A stretch of 64,000 bases of DNA from a virus. The stretch lies in the IMG/VR virus record IMGVR_UViG_3300022821_000014, positions 1 through 64,000 of that record, one strand, 5' to 3'. The position numbers were made by a program, and so were the translations under genes. The notes beneath the pieces were generated by a model. The model was not told the origin of the DNA, made no database searches, and saw only the letters and a program-made list of their open reading frames with translations. Of the stretch, positions 12,251-57,654 are shown one piece after another (within the stretch, counting starts at the first letter, position 1; every line of letters begins with the position of its first letter).

Positions 12251-13060
12251 ATGCAATTAAAAATTGAAAAAGCAAACCAGACCAAGGCAGGAATCTACAA
12301 GATAACAAATTTACACAATGGACGCTTCTACATAGGAAGTGCCAAAAACCTTTCTTCAAGGTACAAATCACATCACTCAAGCCTTCGTCGAAACAAGCAC
12401 CATAACCAATACCTCCAGAACGACTGGAACAAGTATAAAGATACTGCCATATACGAGTTCACAGCAATCCAATTTACCAGCGAAGAACAACGATTGCTCG
12501 TCGAGCAAAAATGGCTCGACAAATTATTTGATGACCCAGGGTGCTGTAATCACAAAAGAAAGGTTAACTCAAAACCTAGAAGCCGATATTCCAACACTCC
12601 CGAAGAAACTGGAAGGAAAATATCAGAAATTCGCAAGAGAAACTGGAAGGACCTCAAGTATAGGAAAGAGCAGACCAAGAAGTTGAAAAAATATGCTTTC
12701 AAGCCTAAGACGTGTACTTTCATCAGCCCAGAAGGTAACGTGACAACCATCACCAATTATAGCGAATTTTGTAGAAACAACCCGCAATATAGAAAACAGG
12801 GGTTCGTTGGGCTCGGCCTCGAAAAAACAAAATCGTACAAAGGTTGGACAAAATACAAACCCACCAGCAAAAAAATTATTCAAATGAATAAGAACGGAGC
12901 CAAGACTTGGTGGTTTAGGAATCCCGCTGGTGAGGAAATCAAAATAATCAACCTACTTAAATTTTGTAGAGAAAATAGTTTAAGCTGTCCTAGTATGCAC
13001 ATGGTTCATAGTGGAAAGCGAAATTCTCACAAAGGATGGACAAAGGCAAATGCCTGGTAA
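12251..13060 (+). CDS. GIY-YIG homing endonuclease
   Basis: This 269-residue free-standing homing endonuclease has a GIY-YIG catalytic domain at about residues 13-100: GIYKIT, then FYIGSAKN, then a catalytic-type Arg/Lys run and EQKWLD. A Lys/Arg-rich linker and two related C-terminal modules of about 40 residues follow (FISPEGNVTTITN-SEFCRNN and FRNPAGEEIKIIN-LKFCREN). Both modules end in a Y/HKGWTK motif and are probably NUMOD-type DNA-recognition units. Such enzymes nick or cut an intron- or gene-less allele to spread themselves. The gene is transcribed against the surrounding tail genes and slightly overlaps the next plus-strand gene, as expected for an inserted mobile gene. Confidence 0.9.
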   Translation: MQLKIEKANQTKAGIYKITNLHNGRFYIGSAKNLSSRYKSHHSSLRRNKHHNQYLQNDWNKYKDTAIYEFTAIQFTSEEQRLLVEQKWLDKLFDDPGCCNHKRKVNSKPRSRYSNTPEETGRKISEIRKRNWKDLKYRKEQTKKLKKYAFKPKTCTFISPEGNVTTITNYSEFCRNNPQYRKQGFVGLGLEKTKSYKGWTKYKPTSKKIIQMNKNGAKTWWFRNPAGEEIKIINLLKFCRENSLSCPSMHMVHSGKRNSHKGWTKANAW

Positions 13061-25371: not shown

Positions 25372-26201
25372 TTCCTACCCTTTTTTTGGGTATCAGGTTC
25401 ATCACCTGACCACATACGCTCGTGCTCGACCGACATATCTTTACCCAGTGGTGTGCCTCCTGTGCCTGATACTTTTCCAGAAGATTGTAGAGCGCCACCG
25501 CCAATTCCGATGGCACTAACTTCATTCATGCCCTTGAGTTTGGCGATGACTTCCTCAAGTTCTTTAATAGTCTTCGAAGCTTCGGTATGCATGATGGCGG
25601 TGCCGCCAGCTGCTCGAAAGCGATTGACATATTTGGGGCGATCATCAATGAGGATATCCCACTCGCTTTTGGCGAAGTTCTCTTTGCCTTTAGTACAATG
25701 GAACTCATCTGTGAGCTTGTCGATTCCATGCATCTTGACCCACTCAATTTTTTCTTCCTCACAACGTGGGTGCCTTGTCATTGGAGCTGTGAGAATGTGT
25801 GGCTTCTTACCCGTGAGTTCGGTAGCAGCCGCAATCATCTCTAATACACCAGGCATCACTTCAAGCTCTAGGAAATGTCCATCTTCACTGGCGACCTTGT
25901 AAAGCAAGCCCTCGTGCTTCTGATAGAGCTTCTTCAGCTTCTTCAGATATGGTTCTGATTGCTCGCCCTTGAGGAGTGTCTTGACATCATCCTTGTGCAT
26001 GTTGGCAATCTCGGGCTTCTTTGCCATGAAGGCCTCAAGCTCTTCTCTTGCCTGGCTAGCACTAGGGTTTGCGTCAACACGACCTGTGAAGTCAGCCAAT
26101 ACGCCATCCATATCAAAATAAATTGTTGGTTCTTGTTTTTCCAGCAACTCTTCTATCACTTCTGTTATCATGAATTTAACTAGCTTTTGTATGTTTTTCA
26201 T
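25368..26201 (-). CDS. HAD-superfamily 5'-nucleotidase-like protein with N-terminal tag
   Basis: The product has 277 residues. Residues 1-25 form an amphipathic helix (KLVKFMITEVIEELLEK) like the shared N-terminal tag. HAD motif I follows (YFDMDGVLADF, 28-38), and motif IV-like DILIDDRPKYVNRFRAAGG lies in the last third. This matches NT5C-type nucleotidases that remove 5'-phosphate from nucleotides. The C-terminal 45 residues (GIGGGALQSSGKVSGTGGT) are Gly/Ser-rich and disordered. No Shine-Dalgarno is visible before ATG 26201. A 31-codon ORF at 27033-27128 repeats this N-terminus, so the GIY-YIG gene seems to have landed in this gene's 5' end. Confidence 0.75.
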   Translation of the reverse strand: MKNIQKLVKFMITEVIEELLEKQEPTIYFDMDGVLADFTGRVDANPSASQAREELEAFMAKKPEIANMHKDDVKTLLKGEQSEPYLKKLKKLYQKHEGLLYKVASEDGHFLELEVMPGVLEMIAAATELTGKKPHILTAPMTRHPRCEEEKIEWVKMHGIDKLTDEFHCTKGKENFAKSEWDILIDDRPKYVNRFRAAGGTAIMHTEASKTIKELEEVIAKLKGMNEVSAIGIGGGALQSSGKVSGTGGTPLGKDMSVEHERMWSGDEPDTQKKGRK

Positions 26202-26217
26202 AGTAAAATATGGTGTT

Positions 26218-27057
26218 ATGGTTGTATTAGAATATACGAATGTGCTTGAATTAATAGGCCTCCCAATAAGTAGGTTTTACGTTTATGCTTTGTGTGACCC
26301 ATTGACTGGAAATCCTTTTTATATTGGTAAAGGTTCAAAAAAACGTTACAGAGACCACTTCAAAGAAGCAGCCAACAACAAGTCTTTCAACAAGTACAAA
26401 ACAAACAAAATTAATAAAATACTACGCAAAGGGAATAAAGTTATTGTTGACATAGTCTTTTCCTCCTACGCATCAAAAAAGTGTTATGTGATTGAAAAAC
26501 AATTAATAAAAAAATTTGGAAGGAAAAACAATAAAACAGGCATCTTGACCAACCTAACGGATGGTGGTGAGGGTGGTGTGTGGCGACACACAGAATTACA
26601 CAAGCAAAAACTTCGTAAAAATAACCCAGGTGCGACTGCAACGGCCAAACTGATACATCAAATAGAACCAAAATCTGGCGAAGTTATCAGAACATGGCCT
26701 TCTACTAGACAAGCGGGCCTAAATCTAAAAATTAGATCGTGGAGAAACATATCCGACTCAGCAAATAATCATAAAAACAGAGTCGTCGGCGGCTTCTATT
26801 GGAGATGGGTAAATGATAATTCAATTTTTGAAAACAAACTAATCGGTGTAGAACAACTCAACAACAACAGAAGAGATAAAAGCTTATGTGCGGGTATAAG
26901 AATTCAACAACTCTCCAAAGAAAAAAACTTTATTGCCGAATGGAAAAACATGTCGGTGGCCGCCAGGGAGTTGGGCTTTAACGTCGCTTCAATTTCACGA
27001 GCTATAAAAACAAATAAATTGTATCGTGGTTGTTACTGGTCGAAAGTGTCGAAGTAG
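26218..27057 (+). CDS. GIY-YIG homing endonuclease
   Basis: This 279-residue protein starts at the Met at 26218; a longer frame from 26170 would overlap the nucleotidase start. FYVYALCDPLTGNPFYIGKG is the GIY-YIG motif. It is followed by KKRYRDHF, with a catalytic-type Arg, and EKQLIKKFG, with the metal-binding Glu. Two C-terminal repeats, HQIEPKSGEVIRTWPSTRQA ending GGFYWRWV and QLSKEKNFIAEWKNMSVAA ending RGCYWSKV, are NUMOD1-like DNA-binding modules. It is on the opposite strand to its neighbours and more AT-rich than them, as expected for a recent arrival. Confidence 0.9.
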   Translation: MVVLEYTNVLELIGLPISRFYVYALCDPLTGNPFYIGKGSKKRYRDHFKEAANNKSFNKYKTNKINKILRKGNKVIVDIVFSSYASKKCYVIEKQLIKKFGRKNNKTGILTNLTDGGEGGVWRHTELHKQKLRKNNPGATATAKLIHQIEPKSGEVIRTWPSTRQAGLNLKIRSWRNISDSANNHKNRVVGGFYWRWVNDNSIFENKLIGVEQLNNNRRDKSLCAGIRIQQLSKEKNFIAEWKNMSVAARELGFNVASISRAIKTNKLYRGCYWSKVSK

Positions 27058-31954: not shown

Positions 31955-34900
31955 TTACCCGCACTTTGAATGCCCACAACCTTGGCAGGTAATACAACCT
32001 TCTTGGTAAGCTAGGTCTTTTGAACTACAGTTCGGACACTTTTTGAGTGAAGGTTTAGTACCATTCTCGATGTAATGTTTGAGTACCCGCATCAGACCCT
32101 TGGCCATTGTAAACATCTCATTGTCCTTGTCAGCACCCTTTTCAATTTGTTCGGTGACATATTGGACAGGAGCACCATGCCGAAGTGCAAGTGAAACGGT
32201 CCTAGTGAACGCACTTTCTGTGGTGTTTGCGAAAACTGATGCAAGGTCCTTGATCACAAGCTCATTTTCACCTTCACCTGTGTACAGATTGTAAGTGCCA
32301 TTTTTCTTGATCACACCCCTCTTGCGACTACGTGGAAGGTGGATGTGTTCCGAGCGGCCAGCGAAAATCTCGTAAGGTTTATCATCGTAGATCCCTACAA
32401 AGAAGTTCCACTTCTCACCACGAACCTGCATATGGTAGATGTCACAAGGGAGTTGTCCAGGGCGCTTTGGAGCATGGTGATAGGCAAATTTGTCTGATGA
32501 ACGAATTTCATCCTCCGACACTAATACACCTGTACGACACTTGTCACGATACACAGTAACTCCCTTGCAGCCCGTTTCCCATCCAGCCATGTAAATGTCT
32601 TTGATTGTATCTACTGTAGTATCTTCTGGCACGTTGGTAGTGTTGCTGATTGAGTGACAAACCCACTGTTGAGCAGCGGCCTGGGCCTTTACTTTGTTTA
32701 ACCAGTTAATATCGTTCGAAGTGGCGCCGTGGTAAGGACTGTCCTTTGGATCAGACTTTCCAGTTACTTCCATCCACTTCTTAAACCAGTGATGGTAAAC
32801 CGTGTATTCCTGCCACTTGTCGCCCATGTCGTCAACAAAATCAACACGGGCATCATGATCTCCTGGGTTGATCTTTCGTCGGCGCTTGTAGGACAGCATG
32901 AACGCTGGTTCAATGCCGCTGGTAGTTTGAGTAAGAACTGAAACAGAACCAGCTGGAGCTGTTGTCGTGTTTGCGATGTTCCGTCGACCGTACTTTTGCC
33001 AGGATTTTTTCATTTCTGGATCAAGGTCCATGATGCGGTTGATAAAGGGGTGATCCTTCTCAAGCTCGTAATCATACACAGGGAAGGCACCACGCTCTTC
33101 AGCAAGTTTCACGCTAGAACGGTGTGAATTTAGTGCCAGATTCTTGTATATTTCGTTGATAAGCTCAATCGACTCTGGGGACCCGTAGACAACATTCATC
33201 GCTGCAACGGCATCACCTACCGCTGTAAGTCCAAGTCCAGTCCGTCGCCCATTTTCAGCAGTTGTTCGAATCTTGTTCCATAGATCAGCCTCCATTTTCT
33301 TTACATCAGGAGGTTCTGGATCGGCATCGATTTTCGCCAGGATTCGATCAATAGCTTCCAGCTCAAGCTCAACCAGGTCGTCCATGAGGCGCTGTGAATC
33401 CTGTACAACATTTGCAAACTCTTCCCAGTCAAATGCAGCTTCGGCTGTAAACGGGTTCTTGACGAATGTTACAGAATTGACAAGTAGCAGTCTACACGAA
33501 TCATATGGTGAGAGAGTTATTTCTCCGCAATTATGTGCAAAGGTTCCCTTGAATGACTTTGTACCATCTTGTTGCCCTGTTATACCAGTAATGATGCCAA
33601 CTGTGTGGCTGTCATCTACTGTAATATTGTACACAGAGTGTGTGCCTTCAACCTCTTCAACTAAAACAATCTTATGGTTGTACTCAATACCTGCATCGCA
33701 AACTTCACTGTAGCTTTTAAAGCCATGCTTTATTTTTTGACCCAGCCTAAATGGGACGTTTTCTTGTTTACAGGCAGTTTCCCACTCCTTGGCCAACGGC
33801 TTTCGTCCTAGCTCGTACTGCAAGGAACTCCAAATTTTAATCTGGTCTCGCATTCGAAGCTCAGCCTTTTCTTTTGCCTTACGGTTAATGGCCTTTGTTC
33901 GCTTCGCATTTATACTCTGATCAGAATTCACGTATTCAAGTGAACATGCATGTGTACAGAAAGAAATTTCTCTTCTGTTGTGTTCAGTTACAAATGATGT
34001 TGCACAAGTTTCGCACTCTTTCTTTACCTGAACCGTATTGTCAGAAATAAACGCCTCATAACCTTGTCTGATCATCTCTTGTAGTGTTCTAACCAAACGT
34101 GGGTCTTTGTCAGTGTGTTCATAGCCCAAAGTACTGGCGCAAAGCATAGAAAGTTCAGCAGGGCTTCGGCCTAAGACCGCATGATGCATTTTAGAGAATG
34201 TCTGTGGCAACCCTTTATTCTTGGCAAAATCTTGCCATTCCTGGTGTGAGAACCTTCGGCCAAGATCCTGAGTAAAATTCAGTGCTTCTTTATAGATTTC
34301 CTTAGATTTTTTTCCGAGGAATTTACCGTTGTTTGAACCATTGTTATCATGCGTTGCATGAAATTGCTGATGTTCACGAAAAGTCATTATCTCAAGATTA
34401 TCAGGATCATTATTGGTGCCATCATAATCTTTGTGATGTACAACCAACCCTCCTTTTACCCAGCCATTTTGTTTCTCAGCTTGGTACTTTTCGGTCCACA
34501 ACTTACCTTGAGTGGCTTCAGCTATGAGTCTATGTTCGTATCTCTTTTTAGGTTCTGCCGAGCGGGTCTCAGTTTTTACTTGGTAGTATTTATTACCAGA
34601 CTTATTCATGCAGACAGGAGTCTTGCTGAATGAGGGCAGGCTATCGCCAGGCACTAGATCCCTAGCATTCTTTGTTTGACCGTCCCTGAGAATCATTTTA
34701 TGATTCGGAGTGACCCTAAGGGTCGTTCCATCATCAAGCGTTATTTTTAATAGCTTCTGATTGAGGTTTGTCAGGCGAGGGTTTCTTCCTGTTTTTATTT
34801 CAACATGACCGTTTTTTGGATTTACTGAGTACAGTAGGACATCTTTACCTTCATCTGCGAGCTGTTTAATTGAAACAGCATCTCTACCGTCAGCCAACGC

Positions 34901-35800
34901 AATTAGTGTATCACTAGAAAAACATGGGTTAGTTGATACTGTTCCGAATCCTACTGATTCGTAGGCGTCTGCTGGAGAGTATTTCTTAACTGTATCCCAG
35001 AACAGAAGTCCAGGCTCAGCTGATTCATGGGCTGACTCAATAATTTCGTGCCAAAGCTCTGCTGCATCGACCCAGGCTTCGACCTTTGGGTCTACTTTTT
35101 GAGTGATGGGCCAGCGAAGCTGAACTTCTTGACCCTTCTTGACTGCATTCATAAACTCATCCGAAAGTCGAATGGAAATGTTGGCTCCAGTCACACGCTT
35201 GCGGTCACGTTTGATGTTGATAAACGTGCGAATTTCTGGGTGGTGTACTGAGATTGAGAGCATTAGTGCACCTCGACGCCCTCCTTGTCCTACTTCACGA
35301 CAGGTGTTTGAAAAACGATCCATGAAAACAGCTATACCATCCGTAGTCCTTGCTGCATTTGCCGTTAGGAGACCTTGAGGTCGGATACTTGAGATGTCAA
35401 AGCCAACACCGCCTCGGCGCTTCATCAGCTGAGCCTGTTCTTGGTCTGTCTTAAGGATACCTCCGTAAGAATCATACGGCTCCTCAATCACAAAACAGTT
35501 GGATAGAGACATAACCTGATAAGGGTTTCCGACACCAGCCATCGGCGATCCTTGGGGGATTATGTATTTGAAATCTTTGAGGTACTGGTAAATTGCCTCT
35601 TCGGACAGCCCGTTTTTAAACTTACCTTCAATTCTTGCAAACTCGCTTGCAAGCCTCCTGTGCATATCTTCAGGAGTTGTTTCTTCTAAACCACCTCTTG
35701 GGTTGTTTATAGCATATTTTGTAATAAAAACATTGGCTGCTAGTTCATCGTTCTTGAAATATTTTAGTGATTGCTTATGTGCTTCTTCGAATGTTGCCAT
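31955..35800 (-). CDS. nrdJ: Class II ribonucleotide reductase (NrdJ) with intein
   Basis: The precursor has 1281 residues, of which 816 remain after splicing. The adenosylcobalamin-dependent enzyme reduces ribonucleotides to deoxyribonucleotides. Visible features: an N-terminal 292-residue extein with SPMAGVGNPYQVMSLSNCFV and RRGGVGFDISSIRP, an intein from residue 293 to 757, and CGEITLSPYDSCRLL. A C-terminal zinc site carries two Cys pairs (CPNC and CQGC, ending KCG), as expected for NrdJ. The intein splits the conserved NPCGE, whose Cys is the thiyl-radical residue. Splicing is therefore needed for activity. It sits upstream of the replicative helicase in this run. Confidence 0.92.
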   Translation of the reverse strand: MATFEEAHKQSLKYFKNDELAANVFITKYAINNPRGGLEETTPEDMHRRLASEFARIEGKFKNGLSEEAIYQYLKDFKYIIPQGSPMAGVGNPYQVMSLSNCFVIEEPYDSYGGILKTDQEQAQLMKRRGGVGFDISSIRPQGLLTANAARTTDGIAVFMDRFSNTCREVGQGGRRGALMLSISVHHPEIRTFINIKRDRKRVTGANISIRLSDEFMNAVKKGQEVQLRWPITQKVDPKVEAWVDAAELWHEIIESAHESAEPGLLFWDTVKKYSPADAYESVGFGTVSTNPCFSSDTLIALADGRDAVSIKQLADEGKDVLLYSVNPKNGHVEIKTGRNPRLTNLNQKLLKITLDDGTTLRVTPNHKMILRDGQTKNARDLVPGDSLPSFSKTPVCMNKSGNKYYQVKTETRSAEPKKRYEHRLIAEATQGKLWTEKYQAEKQNGWVKGGLVVHHKDYDGTNNDPDNLEIMTFREHQQFHATHDNNGSNNGKFLGKKSKEIYKEALNFTQDLGRRFSHQEWQDFAKNKGLPQTFSKMHHAVLGRSPAELSMLCASTLGYEHTDKDPRLVRTLQEMIRQGYEAFISDNTVQVKKECETCATSFVTEHNRREISFCTHACSLEYVNSDQSINAKRTKAINRKAKEKAELRMRDQIKIWSSLQYELGRKPLAKEWETACKQENVPFRLGQKIKHGFKSYSEVCDAGIEYNHKIVLVEEVEGTHSVYNITVDDSHTVGIITGITGQQDGTKSFKGTFAHNCGEITLSPYDSCRLLLVNSVTFVKNPFTAEAAFDWEEFANVVQDSQRLMDDLVELELEAIDRILAKIDADPEPPDVKKMEADLWNKIRTTAENGRRTGLGLTAVGDAVAAMNVVYGSPESIELINEIYKNLALNSHRSSVKLAEERGAFPVYDYELEKDHPFINRIMDLDPEMKKSWQKYGRRNIANTTTAPAGSVSVLTQTTSGIEPAFMLSYKRRRKINPGDHDARVDFVDDMGDKWQEYTVYHHWFKKWMEVTGKSDPKDSPYHGATSNDINWLNKVKAQAAAQQWVCHSISNTTNVPEDTTVDTIKDIYMAGWETGCKGVTVYRDKCRTGVLVSEDEIRSSDKFAYHHAPKRPGQLPCDIYHMQVRGEKWNFFVGIYDDKPYEIFAGRSEHIHLPRSRKRGVIKKNGTYNLYTGEGENELVIKDLASVFANTTESAFTRTVSLALRHGAPVQYVTEQIEKGADKDNEMFTMAKGLMRVLKHYIENGTKPSLKKCPNCSSKDLAYQEGCITCQGCGHSKCG
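33530..34924 (-). mobile_element. NrdJ intein with HNH endonuclease
   Basis: The 465-residue intein starts at Cys293 (CFSSDTLIALADGRDA) after STNP and ends AHN before CGEIT, so nucleophiles at both junctions are Cys. Block B is seen as VTPNHKMIL. The final blocks are HSVYNITVDDSHTV, then GTFAHN. The central part contains an HNH nuclease motif: VVHHKDYDGTNNDPDNLEIM, then HQQFHATH. A Cys-x2-Cys pair follows at about 596-599 and 615-619. Endonuclease and splicing parts are both intact by eye. Confidence 0.88.
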
Positions 35801-40405: not shown

Positions 40406-40813
40406 CTAGCCTATTATGACCAATTCAACATGTCCACTATCCTTAATCGACAGGAACAAACTTTCTGTTTTAAACTTGTCAATCTTATACAGTGGAATTT
40501 CTGTACCAGCTAGAATCAAGCTGCCAAAAACAACTTCGTCTGTGTTACAAGGACTAATCTCTGGTGGTCTAAAATTAATGAGAACTTCCATGATTACGCT
40601 AACCAAACTTTCAGGGTCGAGTGAGATCGCCTTGACAATTCCAAGCTCATCTTGTATTGACATTATTAGTGGCATGAGGGTATGATACCACTCGTATACA
40701 CTGTACCGACCTGTACTCCCACTATTCCAGTCATCTGATAACACATCACCTGTTTTGGGGTCTACTAGCTTTCCTGGCAATCTTGACCAATATCTTCTGG
40801 TGGCGAGTTTCAC
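40406..40813 (-). CDS. Hypothetical protein, 135 aa
   Basis: Not recognised. The start codon overlaps the stop of the RecA C-piece (ATGA), so it is likely translated with it. It begins ATRRYWSRLPGKLVDPKTGD, has a helical middle (WYHTLMPLIMSIQDELGIV) and ends in alternating hydrophobic strands. A small co-factor of recombination is possible by position only. Confidence 0.5.
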   Translation of the reverse strand: MKLATRRYWSRLPGKLVDPKTGDVLSDDWNSGSTGRYSVYEWYHTLMPLIMSIQDELGIVKAISLDPESLVSVIMEVLINFRPPEISPCNTDEVVFGSLILAGTEIPLYKIDKFKTESLFLSIKDSGHVELVIIG

Positions 40814-41841
40814 TTTCCATGCGCCTTTAGTGCCTCAGCCTCTTCAACGGAATCCTTGTTTACACCCGCAAAAGTCAAATGTTCCTTTGCATCACGTTGC
40901 ATGACCAATGCATCGGTATATAGTGCGTCAACGTACTCTTGGTAAGCAGGGTTGTAAAGAACCCTGTTGAAATTAGGCTTGTAGAATTTTTCCTCAACAA
41001 GAATTTCACCCGTACTCTGGTCAGTCACAGTGAATGTTTTCCAAGCAGCTGTGCCAGCGACGAGGATCGATTTCCCGTTATGAACTACACCGTAAGCATC
41101 CTTATCTTGTTTGATAACTTCCGTACAATGTGCACGAAACAAGTCAAAAACTTCTTCATGTTCAACAACGCCGACGCCGAAGATAATCTGGAACTCACAA
41201 GTGCGGAATGGCCGAGCTACACGGTTCTTGATCGTCTTGGCTTTCACCTTAATGCCAATGACGTTCCCTGCATTATCTTTAATTTGCTGCTGCCCAGTAG
41301 AAGAAATACGAACACGGACTGAACTTGCGTAAGGGATAGCCATCCCACCAGGTGTTGTAGTGTTGTGGTTAATAAACCCTTCAGCAATATAGTTGTGAGT
41401 GTCTTCCACTTCGCAATCAACAACTTGTATGGGGTGTTGTACTTGTTCAGCACCAATGTAGTCTTCAAGACGAATATACTCGCCATCAACAAAGATCTTA
41501 TGGTCTTTGGTGCCGTGAAGAGTATTTGCTTGGTAGTGCTCGTCTGCATTTTGTTTGACGACAAACGTTTTCAGTGGCTTCCAAACTTCCTGCTTGGATT
41601 CGTGATCATATGAGAGGATTTCATATTTTTCATGTTCTATATTGTAGATTTCTGGCGTATTTAGATCTTCTATACCTATACGTTTTGCCAATTCACGAAA
41701 TGTGATTTCCTCTTCCACGAACTGACGTTCATGCCTTGTTTCAAGATTGTGTTTTTTTATTTCGGTTTCCATAAGTTTCTGTCTTTCGGTGGCAAGCTTC
41801 ACACAATGTTCTTCCGTTTGAGGTTCTCCAAAGAGGTTCAT
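40810..41841 (-). CDS. recA: RecA C-terminal piece preceded by split-intein C-half
   Basis: The ATG at 41841 has GAGG nine bases upstream. The 343-residue product holds about 160 residues of intein, then TTTPGGMAIPYASSVRVRIS. This is the RecA L2 loop and the core strand that follows it. The C-extein continues RFCEF-type strands to KEHLTFAGVNKDS, 183 residues. The rest of RecA is encoded separately upstream and must be joined by trans-splicing. RecA/UvsX drives strand exchange in phage recombination-dependent replication. The gene's start lies inside the end of the intervening endonuclease frame. Confidence 0.85.
   Translation of the reverse strand: MNLFGEPQTEEHCVKLATERQKLMETEIKKHNLETRHERQFVEEEITFRELAKRIGIEDLNTPEIYNIEHEKYEILSYDHESKQEVWKPLKTFVVKQNADEHYQANTLHGTKDHKIFVDGEYIRLEDYIGAEQVQHPIQVVDCEVEDTHNYIAEGFINHNTTTPGGMAIPYASSVRVRISSTGQQQIKDNAGNVIGIKVKAKTIKNRVARPFRTCEFQIIFGVGVVEHEEVFDLFRAHCTEVIKQDKDAYGVVHNGKSILVAGTAAWKTFTVTDQSTGEILVEEKFYKPNFNRVLYNPAYQEYVDALYTDALVMQRDAKEHLTFAGVNKDSVEEAEALKAHGK
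41362..41841 (-). mobile_element. C-part of an atypically split RecA intein
   Basis: This piece carries almost all intein blocks: LHGTKDHKIF (block B), VDCEVEDTHNYIAEG (block F), then INHN with the terminal Asn and Thr as +1 nucleophile. The first ~40 residues (to about RHERQFVEE) overlap the endonuclease frame. EITFRELAKRIG onward looks like intein. The splice partner is only 14 residues long, so the break falls near the S1-type site close to the intein N-terminus. Confidence 0.8.
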
Positions 41842-42598
41842 ATCTTTTTGCCTCTTCAACAGATTTGATATTACCTTCTTCTAAAAGCAAACAAAAAGGA
41901 TAAATGTGATCTACGTGCAATTTTTCTGTTCTATCGCATCTGATGCATTTGTGCTCATCACGTTTCAGAGCACTCTGCCTCCATTTTCGATATGCGTAAC
42001 TTTTCCTAATCAAACTAGCGGTTTTCGTTAAACCACTTTTCCAATTTGGATTTTTTTCTTTTCTTTTTGGGTTTGCTTTATTGTATCTTATTATCCAAGA
42101 ACGCAATTTTTTCCTGTGTTCCTCGGTCGGCTGATATCTTGGACTTGGTATAGCTTTTATTGGATAAAACTGGCTAAGCTTGTCTATAATTCGTTTTGTT
42201 TTTCTTAGTTTGAGATTTAGTTTATTGGCTATGTGCCCGTAAGGTACTTCCGCCTGGCACAATGCAATTATTTGTTCATAATCTTCTGGTGATAAATCCT
42301 GGGGCAGGTATTTGATCTGCTTTTTAGCGCACTGATCCCGAACATATCTGCGATAAACCCTATCGGAAATTCCTAGTTTAGTCTTAATCCACCTGGGCGG
42401 GACGAACCTTTTATCCCAATAACCGTGAAGTTATTTAACTTGTTCCTCCGAAAGGATAACCTTCTGAGCTTCTCCAATGTTTCTTCGCCGCTCTTTCGAA
42501 AAGACCTTTCCCGTATTCGCTGCTGCGATTTTCCGCCTTGTTTCTTTTGAGTGTGCATACCTTTTTTTGTTCTTTGCTGGTTTCATGCAGCTAAACAT
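41741..42598 (-). pseudogene. HNH homing endonuclease between the recA pieces, with in-frame stop
   Basis: From the ATG at 42598, overlapping the end of the N-piece, the frame encodes a NUMOD3-like segment (HSKETRRKIAAANTGKVF), then EEQVK and TAA at 42431-42433. The same frame then runs on without interruption: HGYWDKRFVPPRWIKTKLG, then a helix-turn-helix-like region. It ends with a zinc HNH, CIRCDRTEKLHVDHIYPF followed by NGRTLCEACHRK, stopping at 41741. One nonsense change separates the two halves. The downstream half has no good ATG. It appears to be an inactivated endonuclease that earlier placed itself in the intein. Confidence 0.65.
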
Positions 42599-43325
42599 AC
42601 TTGCGAATTCGAATCCTAGTGTCTGGAGTAACGCAAGGGTCTCCAAACATGACACCGATCTTCTGACGTTGTTGGTTAATGAGAAGGAAGAGGACATTTT
42701 GGTTACCAATAATATTGACGATTTTACGCATGCCTTTACCTAACACACGGGCTTGGAGGCCAATCGTGTTAGAGTCATAATCGCCCTCAAGCTCAGCTTT
42801 AGGAGACGAGGCGGCAATAGAATCCCACACGATTGTTACTGGAACATTCTTTTGCATAGCACGAGCCTTAAGGATCGTTGATTCAGCAATTTTGAAAATT
42901 TCTTCCGTGCACGCTGTCTGACAAAAGATGAAACGGTTACTTACGTCGATACCAATTGCACTAAGGTTATCAAGGCTAGTGGCGTTTTCCGTATCTATGT
43001 AAACAACTATTCCTCCCATCTTCTGGGTCGCCTTAGAGGCTTCGAAAGCAATGTGTGATTTGCCGCTTGATGTTGGCCCCTGAATTTCTACAATCCTACC
43101 TTCTGGAAAGCCCCCGACTGCTTGGTTTGCAATGATCGCATCAAGCTGTCGTGAGCCTGTGCTAATCCATCGTTTGATATTTGTTGGGGCGTCATCGGTA
43201 GAAAGATTGAAAGCGATATTCTCGCCGTTCTCCTTGTTCAACTGCTTAATAAGGTCAGTTGTAAAGTCATCACCCATGTCATCTGCACTGGCGGTGTCTG
43301 TTGTTGTTTTTTTCTTTTTGGCCAC
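42591..43325 (-). CDS. recA: RecA N-terminal piece ending in a 14-residue N-intein
   Basis: A GTG start at 43325 follows AGAGG. The 244-residue product includes an acidic N-terminal segment and Walker A GPTSSGKS (about 80-87). VVYIDTENA is the strand with the catalytic Glu-type residue, TIVWDSIAA is Walker B, and INQQRQKIGVMFGDP leads up to the L2 loop. It then reads CVTPDTRIRIRKYV and stops. The natural RecA sequence would continue TTTPGG, which is found in the separate C-piece. Together the exteins give 413 residues, close to T4-like and bacterial RecA core lengths. Confidence 0.87.
   Translation of the reverse strand: MAKKKKTTTDTASADDMGDDFTTDLIKQLNKENGENIAFNLSTDDAPTNIKRWISTGSRQLDAIIANQAVGGFPEGRIVEIQGPTSSGKSHIAFEASKATQKMGGIVVYIDTENATSLDNLSAIGIDVSNRFIFCQTACTEEIFKIAESTILKARAMQKNVPVTIVWDSIAASSPKAELEGDYDSNTIGLQARVLGKGMRKIVNIIGNQNVLFLLINQQRQKIGVMFGDPCVTPDTRIRIRKYV
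42594..42635 (-). mobile_element. Very short N-intein of the split RecA intein
   Basis: Fourteen residues from Cys231 of the N-piece (CVTPDTRIRIRKYV) form intein block A. They are followed directly by a TAG stop. Most natural split inteins have an N-half near 90-120 residues, so this is exceptionally short. The adjacent endonuclease begins within the same bases in another frame. Confidence 0.75.
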
Positions 43326-44346: not shown

Positions 44347-45153
44347 TTATTTGGTTGCGCAAACATCATGCTTGCGTGTCATGTAGAATTTACCCATGGT
44401 TTTTGGGTAAACATACTTTTTAATTTTCGTGCTAAGATTATTCCCACTGTATTTCAACTCATAACATTGGGCAGTCTTTATTTTGTACGGTCTTTTATTG
44501 GGAATGCCAGTATTCTCGGTTAACTGGCGTTGTAACTCTTTCAAGAAATCTTGTGAGGCAGACGCAATTTGCAGTCCTAATGTTGGCGTAACACCTTCTC
44601 TGTTTCTAATAAACCAGCAACCATCTCCATCAATAAACCCTCTGATATAATGTGGGTAAAAAGATTCTTTCAGATTGGGCCAGGACAAATTGTGAGTTTT
44701 TTGTGGTGTCACCCCATAACAAGATAAATCAGACTTTAATCTTCTGCTGCTGACTTCAAAAGTCGAATAAGGTCCGTACGTTCTGACCTTATTTTCTGCC
44801 TCTAATTCTTCTCTAAGGTATTCTAACAAATATGCATCTTCATTTTTCAGTGTCAATTTAATTGCATTGCGTTTCGTTGAAACACATCCATCGGCTGCCA
44901 ACAATCCTAGAAAGTAAGCTTTGGAAGGTGTGTTAATATGTGAAAAATATTTTTGATTGACCTTGTTGGACCTGGGTCCAGGTGAACGTAATTTACGGTT
45001 GTGTTTTGTCAGTAACCATCTGACCCAGGATAAACTCTTGTTGAAATATTTGGCTGTCTTAGACACACCTTCGACAAGGTATTTTTTATACACCTCATCA
45101 GGATTATAAGCCATTCGTTGTCTGTTCCATTCCTTTCTATAAGTATGGTTCAT
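44347..45153 (-). CDS. LAGLIDADG homing endonuclease (free-standing)
   Basis: Two LAGLIDADG motifs are visible in the 268-residue product: AYFLGLLAADGCVST and YIRGFIDGDGCWFI. The second Gly-Asp-Gly-Asp-Gly form carries the catalytic acids. Both motifs in one chain indicate a monomeric enzyme. The N-terminal ~75 residues (VEGVSKTAKYFNKSLSWVRW) form a helix-turn-helix-like DNA-binding segment. The start is taken at the Met at 45153; the frame extends to 45234. It stands alone between SSB and the tiny-ORF cluster, not in an intron or intein. Confidence 0.85.
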   Translation of the reverse strand: MNHTYRKEWNRQRMAYNPDEVYKKYLVEGVSKTAKYFNKSLSWVRWLLTKHNRKLRSPGPRSNKVNQKYFSHINTPSKAYFLGLLAADGCVSTKRNAIKLTLKNEDAYLLEYLREELEAENKVRTYGPYSTFEVSSRRLKSDLSCYGVTPQKTHNLSWPNLKESFYPHYIRGFIDGDGCWFIRNREGVTPTLGLQIASASQDFLKELQRQLTENTGIPNKRPYKIKTAQCYELKYSGNNLSTKIKKYVYPKTMGKFYMTRKHDVCATK

Positions 45154-45259
45154 TGGGTCGAAATTGACCAATTCTAAGCGTCCGAGATGAAGATTTATCT
45201 TCAATGATTTCAAGTACTTACGCACTGCAAGCAATTTATTTTGGCCATGTTTTCGAGTG

Positions 45260-52509: not shown

Positions 52510-54840
52510 TTAGTCATCTTTACGTTCGATCACATCCAACTTGGTAAAATGTGTTGAAAGGCCGAAATCTGACTTTTTAAATCTAGCTAACACAAGTGTA
52601 TTGCTAGGAATCACTGCATCACGCTTAGGGTTGAATCCCCAGATAAAACACCCCTGCTCTGAGCCAGACTCTCCATAGACTTTCATTCTCAGATATGGTT
52701 TTCCATTCCTTGTTTTGGCTACTACACTTCGTTTTACAACTGCCCAATAATAACTGTTTTCACTGCGCCATTCATCAACAGACCCAATACCATTTTCTTC
52801 GAAGTAGGCCTTGATCTCCTTTGTGATGATAAGGTTGATGTTCACTGAACCTGCAAGCGTCTGACTGTGCTCGATCTTCTCATCAATCGTCCAGTCCTTA
52901 AGCCCCTGAGCCTCCTTAATAAGGTCTTCCAGGATTTCTGGTGGACGTGGTTCTTTTTTCCGTGAACAGGCTCTTTTTAGATTATCAGCTTGGTCGACAA
53001 GCACATAATGCATTTGGCGATAGTTCTTGAACATCTTGTCTTCACCGACAAGGTCCATAGACTCAAAAGCTTCAAGCTTTATAAGAGTTGAAAGGGCTCT
53101 CTTGTTGAATTTGCTGTGCCTCCATGTCTGATCCTGATTCCATAGAAGCTCCTCAACCGTTTTGTAGGGTCGGAATTCTTGAATTTCCCTTAGTGTGGGC
53201 ATGCCAACATGCTTCAGTGCCTGGAAACTTGGAATTAGCACTCCGTTTTTGACCTGATAATCTGCCTCAGACTCGTTGATGTCAGGCTTCCCAACCTTGT
53301 AACCAAGACCCTTAGCTTCACCAAGGGCGATTGAGATAGGCGCTTCTTTGCCTGTAACGTGTCCCTTATCAGTTGCACAGTAATCGATATAACTGGCCAT
53401 CCACTCATCTGGATGATAGGTGAGAAGCCAAGCACACTGATATGAAGTGATGGCATAGGCGGTAGCGTGGCTCTTATTGAACGAGTATGCTACGAACTCT
53501 TCCATCTCGTCAAAAATCTTGTAGCTGGTAATCAGCTGCGTGCCGTGTACTTCTTTGCATTTGATGGCGAAATCTTCACGCATCTGCTTTCTCTGTGCGT
53601 CAGCTGCACCCTTGTTAGATTTGTCCTTCTTTGTGAAGGATTTACGAACCATGTCGGTCTCTTCGAGAGGAACCCCAGCCATCTGATGGTAGATGAGCTG
53701 TAGTTGCTCCTGGAAAACAATTAGTCCACAGGTGACATCCAGCACCTCTTCGAGTAACTCATGTTTGTAGATGATGCTCTCAGGGTTTTTGCGGTTGTTC
53801 AAATACAACTTGTCAGCTCCGATGGCTAGAGGTCCAGGGCGGAAAATCGAAGTTGCTGTTGCGATATCAAGGATGGTCCTTGGCTTCATCTTCTTAATGA
53901 ATTTCTGTACGGGAGGCTGGACGAACTGAAAAACTCCAGCCCAGTTGCCGTTCCAATACACATGTTTGTAGACTTTGATGTCATCCATCTGATTGTTGTC
54001 TGGATGAAGGTTCGTATAGAACCAGTCCTGCACATTTCGGAATGTTGGGTATTTGGTACCCTGTTTCTTTAGAATACGTCGAATTGTGTTCTCAAATATC
54101 CTAAGCGTACCAAGCCCAAGAATATCAAACTTTAGAAGCCCGAAACCTTCAAGGTGACGAAAATTCAATCCCTCTTGCCAAGGCGTTTGAAGAACCCCAC
54201 CGCTCTTGATGAGCGGCATGTGCTTATTGGGAGTCTCCGTAATGATGACGCCGCCAGCATGTCGTGAGACGTTTCTCATTTGCTTGAACAACACCTTGAT
54301 GTTGTTTTCAAGGTCAGGGAACTCAACCATAAGCTCCTGAAAAGTCTTGGACTTCTCAGCTGCCTCGTCAAATGTCAATGTCCACAGCTGTCGGTCGAAG
54401 CCTGGCTTCTTCTTCGCCTCACCCAATGCCTCACTTTCAATTTTACGTGTGTATTTATTGACCTCTTCGAATGGCACTCCATTCAAGCGACACAAGTCCT
54501 TAACCAATGAGCGCATTTGAAGTTGGTTGAAGTTAGAAATCGGGATGACGTTCTCTTCACCAAAGTGTTCAGCAATAAGCTGAACTGCTTTCTCACGGTC
54601 TGAGAAATCAGAGTCAATATCGGGAAAGCCTTTCTTGAAGCGTGTGAGGAAACGCTCAAAAAGTAGGCCATACCTGATCGGGTCTAGCTGAGTAATGTTC
54701 AGAACATAAGCAAGCAAAGACCCGCCAGCAGAATTGTGTACTCCTAATCCTTCAATGTTATATGAATGAGATTCACTGACGGTGAGATCATGAACCTTGC
54801 CTGTGTAATGGAATAGAGTCTTTTTTGTTAGCTTTGCCAA
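52510..54840 (-). CDS. dnaE: DNA polymerase III alpha, C-piece with split-intein C-half
   Basis: The TTG start at 54840 has AAGGA eight bases upstream. The 776-residue product starts with 36 residues of intein ending VHN, then SAGGSLLAYVLNIT, the conserved palm motif. GFPDIDSDFS follows with catalytic aspartates at 74, 76 and 78 (P-D-x-D-x-D-F). Beta-binding and OB-like parts follow to the C-terminus. The N-half of the polymerase is encoded separately at 55912. Trans-splicing is required for an active bacterial-type replicase. Confidence 0.9.
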   Translation of the reverse strand: MAKLTKKTLFHYTGKVHDLTVSESHSYNIEGLGVHNSAGGSLLAYVLNITQLDPIRYGLLFERFLTRFKKGFPDIDSDFSDREKAVQLIAEHFGEENVIPISNFNQLQMRSLVKDLCRLNGVPFEEVNKYTRKIESEALGEAKKKPGFDRQLWTLTFDEAAEKSKTFQELMVEFPDLENNIKVLFKQMRNVSRHAGGVIITETPNKHMPLIKSGGVLQTPWQEGLNFRHLEGFGLLKFDILGLGTLRIFENTIRRILKKQGTKYPTFRNVQDWFYTNLHPDNNQMDDIKVYKHVYWNGNWAGVFQFVQPPVQKFIKKMKPRTILDIATATSIFRPGPLAIGADKLYLNNRKNPESIIYKHELLEEVLDVTCGLIVFQEQLQLIYHQMAGVPLEETDMVRKSFTKKDKSNKGAADAQRKQMREDFAIKCKEVHGTQLITSYKIFDEMEEFVAYSFNKSHATAYAITSYQCAWLLTYHPDEWMASYIDYCATDKGHVTGKEAPISIALGEAKGLGYKVGKPDINESEADYQVKNGVLIPSFQALKHVGMPTLREIQEFRPYKTVEELLWNQDQTWRHSKFNKRALSTLIKLEAFESMDLVGEDKMFKNYRQMHYVLVDQADNLKRACSRKKEPRPPEILEDLIKEAQGLKDWTIDEKIEHSQTLAGSVNINLIITKEIKAYFEENGIGSVDEWRSENSYYWAVVKRSVVAKTRNGKPYLRMKVYGESGSEQGCFIWGFNPKRDAVIPSNTLVLARFKKSDFGLSTHFTKLDVIERKDD
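54733..54840 (-). mobile_element. C-half of the split DnaE intein
   Basis: Thirty-six residues with VHDLTVSESHSYNIEGLGVHN. Block F (HDLTV...HSYN) and block G (VHN) are clear, and the +1 residue is Ser. The length is typical of natural split inteins. Confidence 0.88.
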
Positions 54841-55744
54841 TGTTATTTTCCTTGTGCCACTTTCGAGCTTCTTTAATCAGTTGTTTCGGAATGTCAGAGT
54901 CAAATACTAGTCTAGCATAAAACTCGTTGTCTTTGCACCACGCCTTCAGTGCATGGTCTTTTGCGTTGCAGCGCCATTGCAATTTTTTGTAATAGAGGCC
55001 ACCACGACCTTTCACTTCAACAATTCGATTTTGATTTACAATGAAATCTGGGTAGTATCGATGTTCTTTTCCTTCAAATACATACGGAATCCCCTCTAGA
55101 TCAAATCGCTTAAGCGAATAACCTTTTTCTAGTGACCAGATAATGAACGCCAATTCATAAGAACTTTGGTATGTAAGACCTTCATACATACCAGATATCG
55201 CAATAGAATTTTTGATTACATTTTCACGGTATTCTGCGCTCTTCCAAAGCCTTTTCTCAATTTGTCTATACTTCTCTTTCATGCCAGGTTGTGCATGTCT
55301 TCTTTTCTGTGAAGCTGTTTGCCTTGCAAGAGTTTCAGGCCGATTTTGCGCTATAAGTTGGGCTTTGCTATTGTTGGCTCGCCATTCGGTATCGTAGGCA
55401 AACTGTTCTTTGTAACAACTATCACAAACTGGTTTTTGGTGTTTCCTTCTCATAAACCCAAATACGATACAAACATAGTCCTTACCACACGGACATTGGA
55501 TGTAGAGGTTGTTTTTATTGTATTTGCTGTGAAGTTTTTGATTTGCCTGAAACTCCATCCAAGAGTACCCAAACTTAGTTTCGATGCCCGAGCGCCAGGC
55601 TCGTCGCTTCAATGAATGCCAGGTCATCTTCCACTCTGTTAACATAGGTGCTAGCATGTCCTCTGTCAGACATGGAGATTCTATGTTCTCGATTGTCTGT
55701 AGTTGTTCTGCGGTCAACTTTGGACAAATTACACGGCCACCCAT
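54788..55744 (-). CDS. EDxHD/PD-(D/E)xK homing endonuclease between dnaE pieces
   Basis: The 318-residue protein has a helical N-terminus and a zinc-like Cys cluster (CPCGKDYVC at 84-92 and CDSC at 107-110). A nuclease core follows: SYELAF (Glu197), YPDFIV (Asp233) and IVEVKGRG (Glu243, Lys245). This resembles the Vsr-like/PD-(D/E)xK endonucleases described for fractured genes. Its position between the two dnaE pieces matches that arrangement. It overlaps the start of the C-piece by 53 bases. It could cut an intein-less dnaE to spread. Confidence 0.75.
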   Translation of the reverse strand: MGGRVICPKLTAEQLQTIENIESPCLTEDMLAPMLTEWKMTWHSLKRRAWRSGIETKFGYSWMEFQANQKLHSKYNKNNLYIQCPCGKDYVCIVFGFMRRKHQKPVCDSCYKEQFAYDTEWRANNSKAQLIAQNRPETLARQTASQKRRHAQPGMKEKYRQIEKRLWKSAEYRENVIKNSIAISGMYEGLTYQSSYELAFIIWSLEKGYSLKRFDLEGIPYVFEGKEHRYYPDFIVNQNRIVEVKGRGGLYYKKLQWRCNAKDHALKAWCKDNEFYARLVFDSDIPKQLIKEARKWHKENNIGKANKKDSIPLHRQGS

Positions 55745-55840: not shown

Positions 55841-55915
55841 TTAAACCATCTGCTTTTTGTCCCAAAACAAACCAACCCACAAATCACGTGGTTCAAATTT
55901 CACTGCCAGCTTCAT
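55841..55915 (-). CDS. Coupled 24-aa micropeptide
   Basis: The ATG overlaps the stop of the DnaE N-piece (ATGA), TAA at 55841-55843. The peptide contains LAVKFEPRDLWVGLFWDKKQ. The 'FEPRDLWVGxxW' string seems like a small conserved phage motif, recalled without verification. Strong coupling supports translation. Confidence 0.5.
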   Translation of the reverse strand: MKLAVKFEPRDLWVGLFWDKKQMV

Positions 55916-57654
55916 ACTTCAACGACAACATCTTCTTCGGTGAGGTGTTGAGCTTCGACCCAGCTTCTATTTGAAGTTAGAATCTCATGGTTCTTGGTAC
56001 ATCTAATCACCTTACCGTTGTCGAGTTCAAGTTCAATACATTCTTCATCGATGTCATATGTCATAGTGTTTTCCACAGATTGTTCATTACCAAATGCGTC
56101 TATTACTTTATCGCTGATGATGATATCTTGAATTTTGGCATGCAACCCATCCGCCATTTTCACACGAGACCCTGGGAGAAAGCATCCTCGGGCGTTTCCA
56201 ATCAGCATGTGTTCACTTACAATCTCCATAATTTTGGAGTACGTGAGGAAATACTTTGAGAAGTTCAGATGCTTGATGACCTTCAGCTCGTGCTTGAGTC
56301 GGGCAATGTACTCCTGGTTTTCAGCAAACCCTCTGCGTTTTATACCTGCAATTGCCTGACGCTTCAGTTCCTGAAAAGCAACCTGGTCTTCGGTCGCCTC
56401 GGTCCCAACCTTATCATAGATTGTTTCCAACTCAAACTTATCTACCATGCGACTGATCGATGGTAGTTTTACAGAACGATCTGGCGTGATATCATCAATC
56501 TGGTCGTGAGCAATTGTGTGTGTTCGTTCAATAGCCTCGCACACCAGATCGTCATCATAGAAATCCCAGCCCTTGCCTTCCTTATACCTGTGGTATGATT
56601 CCCAAACCTGCTCGGCATTCTTTGGATAAAGTTCACATTTCAACTCTTCCATCTTCTGCGGGAGTTTGGAAGTATCCAAGCCTTGGCCTCTGGAAGACCA
56701 CGCCATCATCTTGTAAATCTCACGCTGCTTCCAGTGGTCTGGGTGAGAGTAGTGTGCATCCACTGTTACAACAAGCTTAGTATTTGTACGCTTACTCGCT
56801 TCAATGAGATGTTGGTTTACAAGATGCTGCGCTCCCAGGGAGTTGAACTGAAGTTCGAGATAATAATTCTCTTCACCAAGAGCCCACTTGAAGCCATCAA
56901 CAACCTTTTTCAATTCCTGTTGAATCTCATCAAAGTGCAGGTCATTGGGCTCCCAGTTCTCGAAGTTTGGGTCTTTCTGTCGGTCAAATACCTTCCGTGC
57001 GGGTACTCCACCTACACATGCCGTTAGAGCAATGATGTTACCCTTTGCGTACTTCTTGAGCATCTCCAGGTCCATCCTGGGGTAGCGATAAAAGCCATCA
57101 ACGTAAGACTCAGAAACAAGCTGGTTAAGTGCTGTAAGGCCCTCACGGTTTTTTGGAAGTAAAACAAGGTGATTTCTCTGGTTCAGAGGGTCGCCATATT
57201 TATTGCCCTTCGTTTCTTCCTCGTTTTCTACTACCGTGCCCGCAACCGTATCTTCCAAATCAAGTTTTGTTGAGGCATATGCATCCCCAAGAAGCTCTAG
57301 ATGTCTCTTGAGCTGGTCCTTAGCATCGACATTACCCTTCTTTACTAGCTTCTCTAGACGCTTGATTTCTCTACGGCCATCATAAATTTCCTGCCATCGT
57401 GGAAGTGAATCAATGAAGTAAGCTTCAATGCCTGGCAGTGCCTTGAAGTTCACGCCCTTCTTTACCAGTTTTTCATGGTGAAAAAACTGGTGTGAATAAC
57501 CATTCATGTTGCCATGGTCTGTAAGCGCCAGGGCATCCATTCCGTTATCAATGGCATAATTGATATGATCTTGCGGCATGCCGATTGCATCACCAATCGA
57601 AAACGTACTGTGGGAATGCAATCCCACAAACTTCTTAGGGTATTTCTTATTCAT
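55912..57654 (-). CDS. dnaE: DNA polymerase III alpha, N-piece with split-intein N-half
   Basis: The 580-residue protein starts with the PHP domain (VGLHSHSTFSIGDA, His13 and His15). PHP metal sites and finger-domain residues follow, up to EHMLIGNARG at residue 490. It then has 90 residues of N-intein, CFLPGSRVKMADGLHAKIQD, with block B KNHEILT, to the stop. The natural polymerase would continue SAGGS. The two exteins give 1230 residues, normal for DnaE. It is the largest enzyme in the replication set and lacks an obvious exonuclease domain. Confidence 0.9.
   Translation of the reverse strand: MNKKYPKKFVGLHSHSTFSIGDAIGMPQDHINYAIDNGMDALALTDHGNMNGYSHQFFHHEKLVKKGVNFKALPGIEAYFIDSLPRWQEIYDGRREIKRLEKLVKKGNVDAKDQLKRHLELLGDAYASTKLDLEDTVAGTVVENEEETKGNKYGDPLNQRNHLVLLPKNREGLTALNQLVSESYVDGFYRYPRMDLEMLKKYAKGNIIALTACVGGVPARKVFDRQKDPNFENWEPNDLHFDEIQQELKKVVDGFKWALGEENYYLELQFNSLGAQHLVNQHLIEASKRTNTKLVVTVDAHYSHPDHWKQREIYKMMAWSSRGQGLDTSKLPQKMEELKCELYPKNAEQVWESYHRYKEGKGWDFYDDDLVCEAIERTHTIAHDQIDDITPDRSVKLPSISRMVDKFELETIYDKVGTEATEDQVAFQELKRQAIAGIKRRGFAENQEYIARLKHELKVIKHLNFSKYFLTYSKIMEIVSEHMLIGNARGCFLPGSRVKMADGLHAKIQDIIISDKVIDAFGNEQSVENTMTYDIDEECIELELDNGKVIRCTKNHEILTSNRSWVEAQHLTEEDVVVEV
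55915..56184 (-). mobile_element. N-half of the split DnaE intein
   Basis: Ninety residues from Cys491, after NARG. Block A CFLPGSRV and block B RCTKNHEIL are clear. The half ends EEDVVVEV at the stop. Junction G-R-G | C faces S-A-G-G in the C-piece. Confidence 0.88.

What the first reader, a model, noticed from the sequence alone, without database searches (positions are those of the whole stretch)
41362..42635. RecA encoded as two genes joined by an atypically split intein with a 14-residue N-half
The N-piece reads through RecA to MFGDP, then CVTPDTRIRIRKYV and a stop. The C-piece carries about 160 residues of intein (blocks B, F, G, ending INHN) followed by TTTPGG, exactly where RecA should continue. 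Natural split inteins usually divide near residue 90-120. A split after ~14 residues is rare and near the engineered S1 site. If the two halves splice in trans, this would be among the smallest natural N-inteins.
Basis: partly seen in the sequence, partly recalled or inferred. Interest (0 to 1): 0.93.

Follow-up and report, generated by a model that had tools for sequence, protein, structure and literature searches.

The report
Phage RecA split by tiny intein
A phage makes its RecA-like DNA-repair protein from two separate genes whose ends carry the two parts of a self-splicing protein tag (one part only 14 amino acids), and the same trick turns out to be common in phages, giving a natural collection of very short protein-joining tags.

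Summary
On the minus strand, the phage UvsX/RecA gene is in two pieces: an N-half ending GDP|CVTPDTRIRIRKYV-stop and a C-half of 137-160 intein residues ending INHN|TTTPGG. It is not an assembly error: two independently assembled contigs repeat it. Spliced, it gives GDPTTTPGG, exactly as in an uninterrupted relative (76% identical), and it is the only RecA in the 91-kb record.

It is not a one-off. I found 42 relatives with an intein in the same loop of UvsX (the L2 loop by homology): 36 split at the same place (N-part 14-41 residues) and 6 unsplit, scattered over the tree. A confident AlphaFold model of an unsplit relative has the intein fold and puts the split in the turn after the second strand, the 'S1' site of VidaL and PolB16. 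The strands either side of the split carry opposite charges and swap them together two or three times, which suggests the pieces bind. In twelve relatives the gap holds a Vsr/EDxHD-type endonuclease gene; only this phage has an HNH gene there, with one in-frame stop.

Best reading: a trans-splicing, S1-split UvsX intein in a 'fractured gene'. New member of a known kind. Splicing itself is untested.

The parts
42636..43325 (-). UvsX/RecA N-extein (GTG start), 230 residues ending ...RQKIGVMFGDP
   Evidence: Pfam RecA E=3.1e-43, PHROG UvsX-like E=4.5e-51; translation
42594..42635 (-). Intein N-part (IntN), CVTPDTRIRIRKYV, 14 residues; stop TAG at 42591-42593
   Evidence: aligned with the family; Cys1, V2, P4, T6 invariant
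41741..42586 (-). NUMOD3/HNH homing-endonuclease ORF between the halves, 282 codons, interrupted by one in-frame TAA (42431-42433, codon 52)
   Evidence: PHROG HNH E=9.5e-12; Pfam HNH E=1.3e-4, NUMOD3 E=1.3e-3, just under its cut-off; stop position; also in L002/L003
41362..41841 (-). Intein C-part (IntC): 160 residues from ATG 41841 (GAGG 9 nt upstream), or 137 from ATG 41772; contains GTKDH (block B), VVDCEVEDTHNYIAEGFINHN (blocks F/G)
40813..41361 (-). UvsX/RecA C-extein, 183 residues beginning TTTPGGMAIPYASSVRVRI; stop at 40810-40812
   Evidence: Pfam RecA E=7.2e-12 on this part; spliced alignment to intact relatives

Best explanation
The phage UvsX gene is fractured at its ssDNA-binding L2 loop by a class-1 intein that is itself split at the S1 position, after strand beta-2. 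The two halves are translated separately from one locus. The basic strand of the 14-residue IntN (RIRIRK) docks against the acidic first strand of IntC (FVEEEIT), completing the Hint fold. Cys1, the block-B His, the final Asn and Thr+1 then carry out splicing, releasing the intein and joining GDP to TTTPGG to restore full-length UvsX. The gap between the halves is a landing place for homing endonuclease genes; here it holds an HNH gene with a stop codon in it. Shown: gene layout, catalytic residues, intact-site match, family conservation, predicted fold of an unsplit relative. Inferred: docking, splicing, and the role of the endonuclease.
For: Layout and extein identity. Independent assemblies. 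Intact relatives L140 (GDPTTTPGG, 76% identical to the spliced window protein over the alignment) and L138 (GDNITTPGG) align without a gap at the junction; L142/L143 do the same for the diverged split relative L019. 36 split relatives and 6 contiguous ones. Invariant C1, P4, T6, block-B H, F-block D, HN. AlphaFold model of contiguous L124, mean pLDDT 92.8; best PDB match RadA intein 4e2u, TM 0.74; split site falls between strands 14-19 and 22-27. Charge of IntN strand versus IntC strand: rho -0.81; all 9 acidic IntN pair with basic IntC, 2-3 independent swaps. dN/dS of IntC 0.02-0.21 in seven measurable close pairs of split relatives. No other RecA in the 91-kb record.
Against: No splicing was observed. 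The window's own intein is diverged (at most 49% identity to any relative) and no close pair allows a dN/dS test on its own lineage. It sits one codon earlier than in most relatives (GDP|TTT instead of GDPT|TT), although the product is the same. Pfam's intein profile barely recognises it (E=0.012, below cut-off). The record may be a fragment, so an intact RecA elsewhere cannot be excluded. The charge swap rests on only 2-3 independent events, too few for a significant phylogenetic test.
Confidence: 0.88

Rival explanations
1. The halves never splice. The gene was broken by an endonuclease gene and the two polypeptides assemble non-covalently, as in the split NrdA of phage Aeh1 or gene 43 of phage 25, or the gene is dead.
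For: Such unspliced split phage enzymes exist (PMC2988022). The endonuclease ORF carries a stop, so the element may be decaying.
Against: Those cases are not described there as carrying intein remnants; here the class-1 catalytic residues are kept across diverged relatives, IntC is under purifying selection in relatives, the charges on either side of the split co-vary, and an intact allele matches the spliced junction. The break lies in a DNA-binding loop of UvsX.
Confidence: 0.08
2. The split is a sequencing or assembly error in a normal contiguous intein.
For: Contiguous versions exist in relatives (L105, L114, L124), and the window's HNH gene has a lone in-frame stop.
Against: Same sequence in two other assemblies; the halves are separated by a whole endonuclease gene, not by a slip; 36 relatives are split at the same place.
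Confidence: 0.01
3. The intein only cleaves itself (no ligation), releasing UvsX fragments as a regulatory switch.
For: Some atypical split inteins, e.g. PolB16, show a high tendency for C-terminal cleavage as a side reaction (PMC13014065).
Against: UvsX is a core recombination protein and the record holds no other copy; the spliced junction matches intact alleles.
Confidence: 0.03

Closest known systems
S1-split natural inteins VidaL (IntN 16 aa) and PolB16 OarG (IntN 15 aa) (PMC13014065, PMC10189870)
   Same: Split immediately after strand beta-2; very short IntN, long IntC; class 1 layout; VidaL is cysteine-dependent like this one.
   Different: Host gene is UvsX here (PolB for PolB16; the host of VidaL was not checked); IntN is 14 aa; sequence searches of the PDB with the window intein or the family profile brought up no VidaL or PolB16 structure; PolB16 uses Ser1/Ser+1.
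'Fractured genes' of Dassa et al. 2009 (cited in PMC12350094; the paper itself is not held)
   Same: A phage core gene in two pieces, each with half an intein, and a free-standing homing endonuclease gene in the gap. Twelve relatives carry an EDxHD/Vsr-like enzyme there.
   Different: From memory, those cases are split at the canonical site (IntN about 100 aa); here S1. The window carries an HNH enzyme instead of EDxHD.
AceL-TerL / GOS-TerL split inteins (S2 site; IntN 25 aa for AceL-TerL)
   Same: Natural, short IntN, long IntC.
   Different: Split after the first helix (S2), different host gene (terminase).
Mycobacterium RecA inteins
   Same: Intein in a RecA protein; the fold is matched (3ifj, TM 0.60-0.62).
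   Different: Contiguous and in bacterial RecA (own knowledge); no close sequence similarity found.

Membership tests
Class 1 intein | Cys/Ser at position 1, block-B TxxH, F-block Asp, C-terminal His-Asn, +1 Cys/Ser/Thr | tested here: met
   C1, TKDH, VVD, INHN, T+1; invariant or near-invariant in the family
Class 1 intein | Hint (horseshoe) fold | tested here: met
   AF2 of contiguous relative L124 (about 40% identical to the window's IntC, up to 63% to split relatives): pLDDT 92.8, Foldseek to RadA and other inteins. The window's own C-half folded alone gave a poor model (pLDDT 41), so this rests on homology
Class 1 intein | Protein splicing activity | not testable with these tools
   Needs co-expression
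Natural S1-split intein | Two separate genes, split just after strand beta-2 | tested here: met
   Gene layout; split between model strands 14-19 and 22-27
Fractured gene (split intein plus free-standing homing endonuclease) | Endonuclease gene between the intein halves | tested here: met
   HNH/NUMOD3 ORF 41741-42586
Fractured gene (split intein plus free-standing homing endonuclease) | Endonuclease of the EDxHD/Vsr family | tested here: not met
   HNH in the window; EDxHD/Vsr-like in 12 relatives
VidaL orthologue | Sequence similarity to VidaL | tested here: inconclusive
   No VidaL structure among PDB hits at E<=10 with sequence or profile; VidaL's sequence was not at hand to compare directly
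UvsX recombinase | RecA/UvsX core on both halves | tested here: met

The most novel reading that the evidence does not exclude
The UvsX L2 loop hosts a large natural family of S1-split inteins that has repeatedly switched between split and fused forms, exchanged unrelated endonuclease classes in the gap, and evolved charge-swapped IntN/IntC interfaces, so that members may be mutually orthogonal trans-splicing pairs with 14-20 residue tags.
Probability: 0.6. Interest if true: 0.68.

Novelty: new member of a known kind. Interest (0 to 1): 0.52.

Why it matters
IntN pieces of about 15 residues can be made by peptide synthesis and are sought for protein labelling; only two natural S1 inteins (VidaL, PolB16) are described in the papers read. 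Here a whole family sits at one site of one phage gene, with split and fused sister pairs and charge-swapped pairs. That makes two questions directly testable: how split inteins arise and re-fuse, and what sets the specificity of such a short docking strand.

Tried and rejected
Assembly error: rejected by L002/L003. VidaL homologue: PDB sequence and profile searches did not bring it up. AlphaFold of the window C-half alone: poor (pLDDT 41), not used. Search of annotated phage records: only RecA C-extein matches, no intein; the family was found in IMG/VR only. Genome-collection scan with the family: only weak intein-like matches in bacterial MAGs, not followed. Relatives of the window's HNH gene: nothing closer than 34-38%, elsewhere in other phages. 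L137, which reads ...GFGYN|TTTPGG, runs off its contig and could not be classed. No held paper combines UvsX with 'split intein'; Dassa 2009 is not held.

Full report
OBSERVATION. The window lies in a 90,967-bp virus record. On the minus strand the UvsX/RecA gene is in two ORFs. The N-half (42591-43325) carries RecA up to MFGDP, then CVTPDTRIRIRKYV and TAG. The C-half ORF ends at 40810 and carries intein blocks ending INHN at 41362, then TTTPGG and the rest of RecA. Started at ATG 41841 (a GAGG lies 9 nt upstream) the intein C-part has 160 residues; started at ATG 41772 it has 137. Between the halves is an HNH endonuclease ORF with a weak NUMOD3 match, 41741-42586, with one in-frame TAA at codon 52 of 282. 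L002 (100% identical over 8,927 bp) and L003 (two differences, both amino-acid changing: one in the N-half, one in the HNH ORF) are other assemblies with the same split and the same TAA. A RecA search of the whole record finds only these two pieces.

SPLICED PRODUCT. Joining the exteins gives a 413-residue UvsX that aligns without gap at the junction to uninterrupted UvsX proteins of relatives: L140 (GDPTTTPGG) and L138 (GDNITTPGG), 76% identical over the alignment. By alignment to E. coli RecA (GNPETTTGG) the insertion lies in the L2 DNA-binding loop (the name of the loop is from my own knowledge). Most family members are inserted one codon later (GDPx|TT.GG); in the window the break is GDP|TTTPGG, but the product keeps the same length.

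A FAMILY, NOT A ONE-OFF. A first scan with the C-half found a diverged virus (L019/L005) whose UvsX is split in the same way, with IntN CVDPVTTKIKIRYKK (15 residues) and an EDxHD/Vsr-like endonuclease in the gap. Its intact kin L142/L143 read GDPWTTSGG. A DNA pattern for NHN-TTxGG then found 114 viral contigs, many of them UvsX. After joining N- and C-halves and removing duplicates there are 42 relatives: 36 split (IntN 14 to 41 residues) and 6 with a contiguous intein (L066, L105, L110, L114, L119, L124). L030 was marked contiguous by the script but is split, with overlapping ORFs; it is counted as split and left out of the trees, which hold 36 split rows (35 split relatives and the window, counted by name) and the 6 contiguous ones plus any row the script kept, 43 rows in all as printed. 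L071 also has a 14-residue IntN. The pattern required NHN and TTxGG, so the true family is probably larger.

WHERE THE SPLIT FALLS. AlphaFold2 on contiguous L124 with 38 further family rows gave mean pLDDT 92.8, pTM 0.87; Foldseek's best matches in the PDB are inteins (RadA 4e2u TM 0.74, Aes123 PolB1 9hth 0.66, Mtu RecA 3ifj 0.60). The strands at model residues 14-19 (intein 8-13) and 22-27 (intein 16-21) are neighbours, and the split falls in the turn between them, before helix 1. That is the S1 position described for VidaL (16 aa) and PolB16 OarG (15 aa, called the shortest characterised) (PMC13014065, PMC10189870). Members with IntN of 25-41 residues seem to be split at the same place with an added tail, because their IntC also begins before helix 1.

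EVIDENCE THAT THE HALVES WORK TOGETHER. C1, V2, P4, T6, the block-B His, the F-block Asp and the final His-Asn are invariant across 18 diverged members including the window. In seven close pairs of split relatives where it could be computed, dN/dS of IntC is 0.02-0.21. The net charges of the IntN strand and of the first IntC strand are opposed (Spearman -0.81 over 43 rows; the window is +3 and -3). All nine members with an acidic IntN strand (e.g. TEIEIEFD) have a basic IntC strand (e.g. MKTKIT), and none of the others does. The tree gives two to three independent swaps. This is too few for a phylogenetically corrected p-value, but the coupling is without exception.

EVOLUTION. On a tree built without most of the split-site linker, the six contiguous members lie on separate branches (at least six changes), some as sisters of split ones (L105 with L019, 99/93; L066 with L100, 100/100). 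Split and fused forms therefore interconvert; the direction cannot be told from the count. Twelve split members have a gap of 850-1,120 nt with an EDxHD/Vsr-like ORF, recognised by its shared motif (PDF...ECFGDYWHANP) (Pfam Vsr or DUF559 on the three tested). Six have a shorter gap (73-521 nt) with no clear endonuclease ORF, and the others overlap or nearly abut. The window groups with L071 (98/84) and L069, but alone carries HNH in the gap. The simplest story (inferred) is replacement of one endonuclease by another at an existing fracture, followed by decay of the new one.

WHAT IT IS. A class-1, S1-split UvsX intein in a fractured gene. It works, most likely, by docking of a basic 14-residue strand onto an acidic strand, and trans-splicing. 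Splicing has not been shown here. It is a new member of a known kind; the family-level picture is the more interesting part. Limits: the literature held is open-access only; the papers on VidaL and fractured genes could not be read, so earlier notice of UvsX split inteins cannot be excluded.

Noticed in passing
window 52513-54840, 54791-55744, 55915-57654 (-): The same phage has a second split intein, at the canonical position, in its DNA polymerase III alpha gene: IntN 90 aa (GNARG|CFLPG...), IntC 36 aa (...GVHN|SAGGS), with a nuclease ORF (weak Phage_endo_I/TnsA-like matches) in the gap.
   Followed up: partly
window 33530-34924 (-): A contiguous 465-residue intein with an HNH_3 domain in the ribonucleotide reductase gene (31958-35800): three inteins of three kinds in one phage.
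   Followed up: partly
L022, L024, L025, L026, L028, L030, L035, L039, L045, L054, L061, L072, L082, L087, L092, L099, L103, L106, just after the intein: In 18 relatives the UvsX reading frame stops soon after TT[PS]GG and resumes about 320-1,220 nt later with [K/M]A[IL][PA]FH[AS]S: an intron about five codons after a split intein. Rfam group I intron matches in L033 (79.5 bits) and, below the curated cut-off, in L024, L045, L087, L103. Such a gene would need protein trans-splicing and RNA splicing within about 15 nt.
   Followed up: partly
L071:4305-6897: UvsX in this record (G011) matches in three separate pieces; the N-part appears to have a further insertion near residue 90 in addition to the 14-residue split intein.
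   Followed up: no
window 44350-45234 (-): Free-standing LAGLIDADG endonuclease ORF next to the single-strand DNA-binding protein gene.
   Followed up: no
window 12251-13057 (+) and 26170-27054 (+): Two GIY-YIG endonuclease ORFs on the strand opposite most genes.
   Followed up: no
L137:1-80: A close relative's UvsX C-part is preceded by ...GFGYN|TTTPGG at a contig end: another insertion at the same site, of unknown type.
   Followed up: partly
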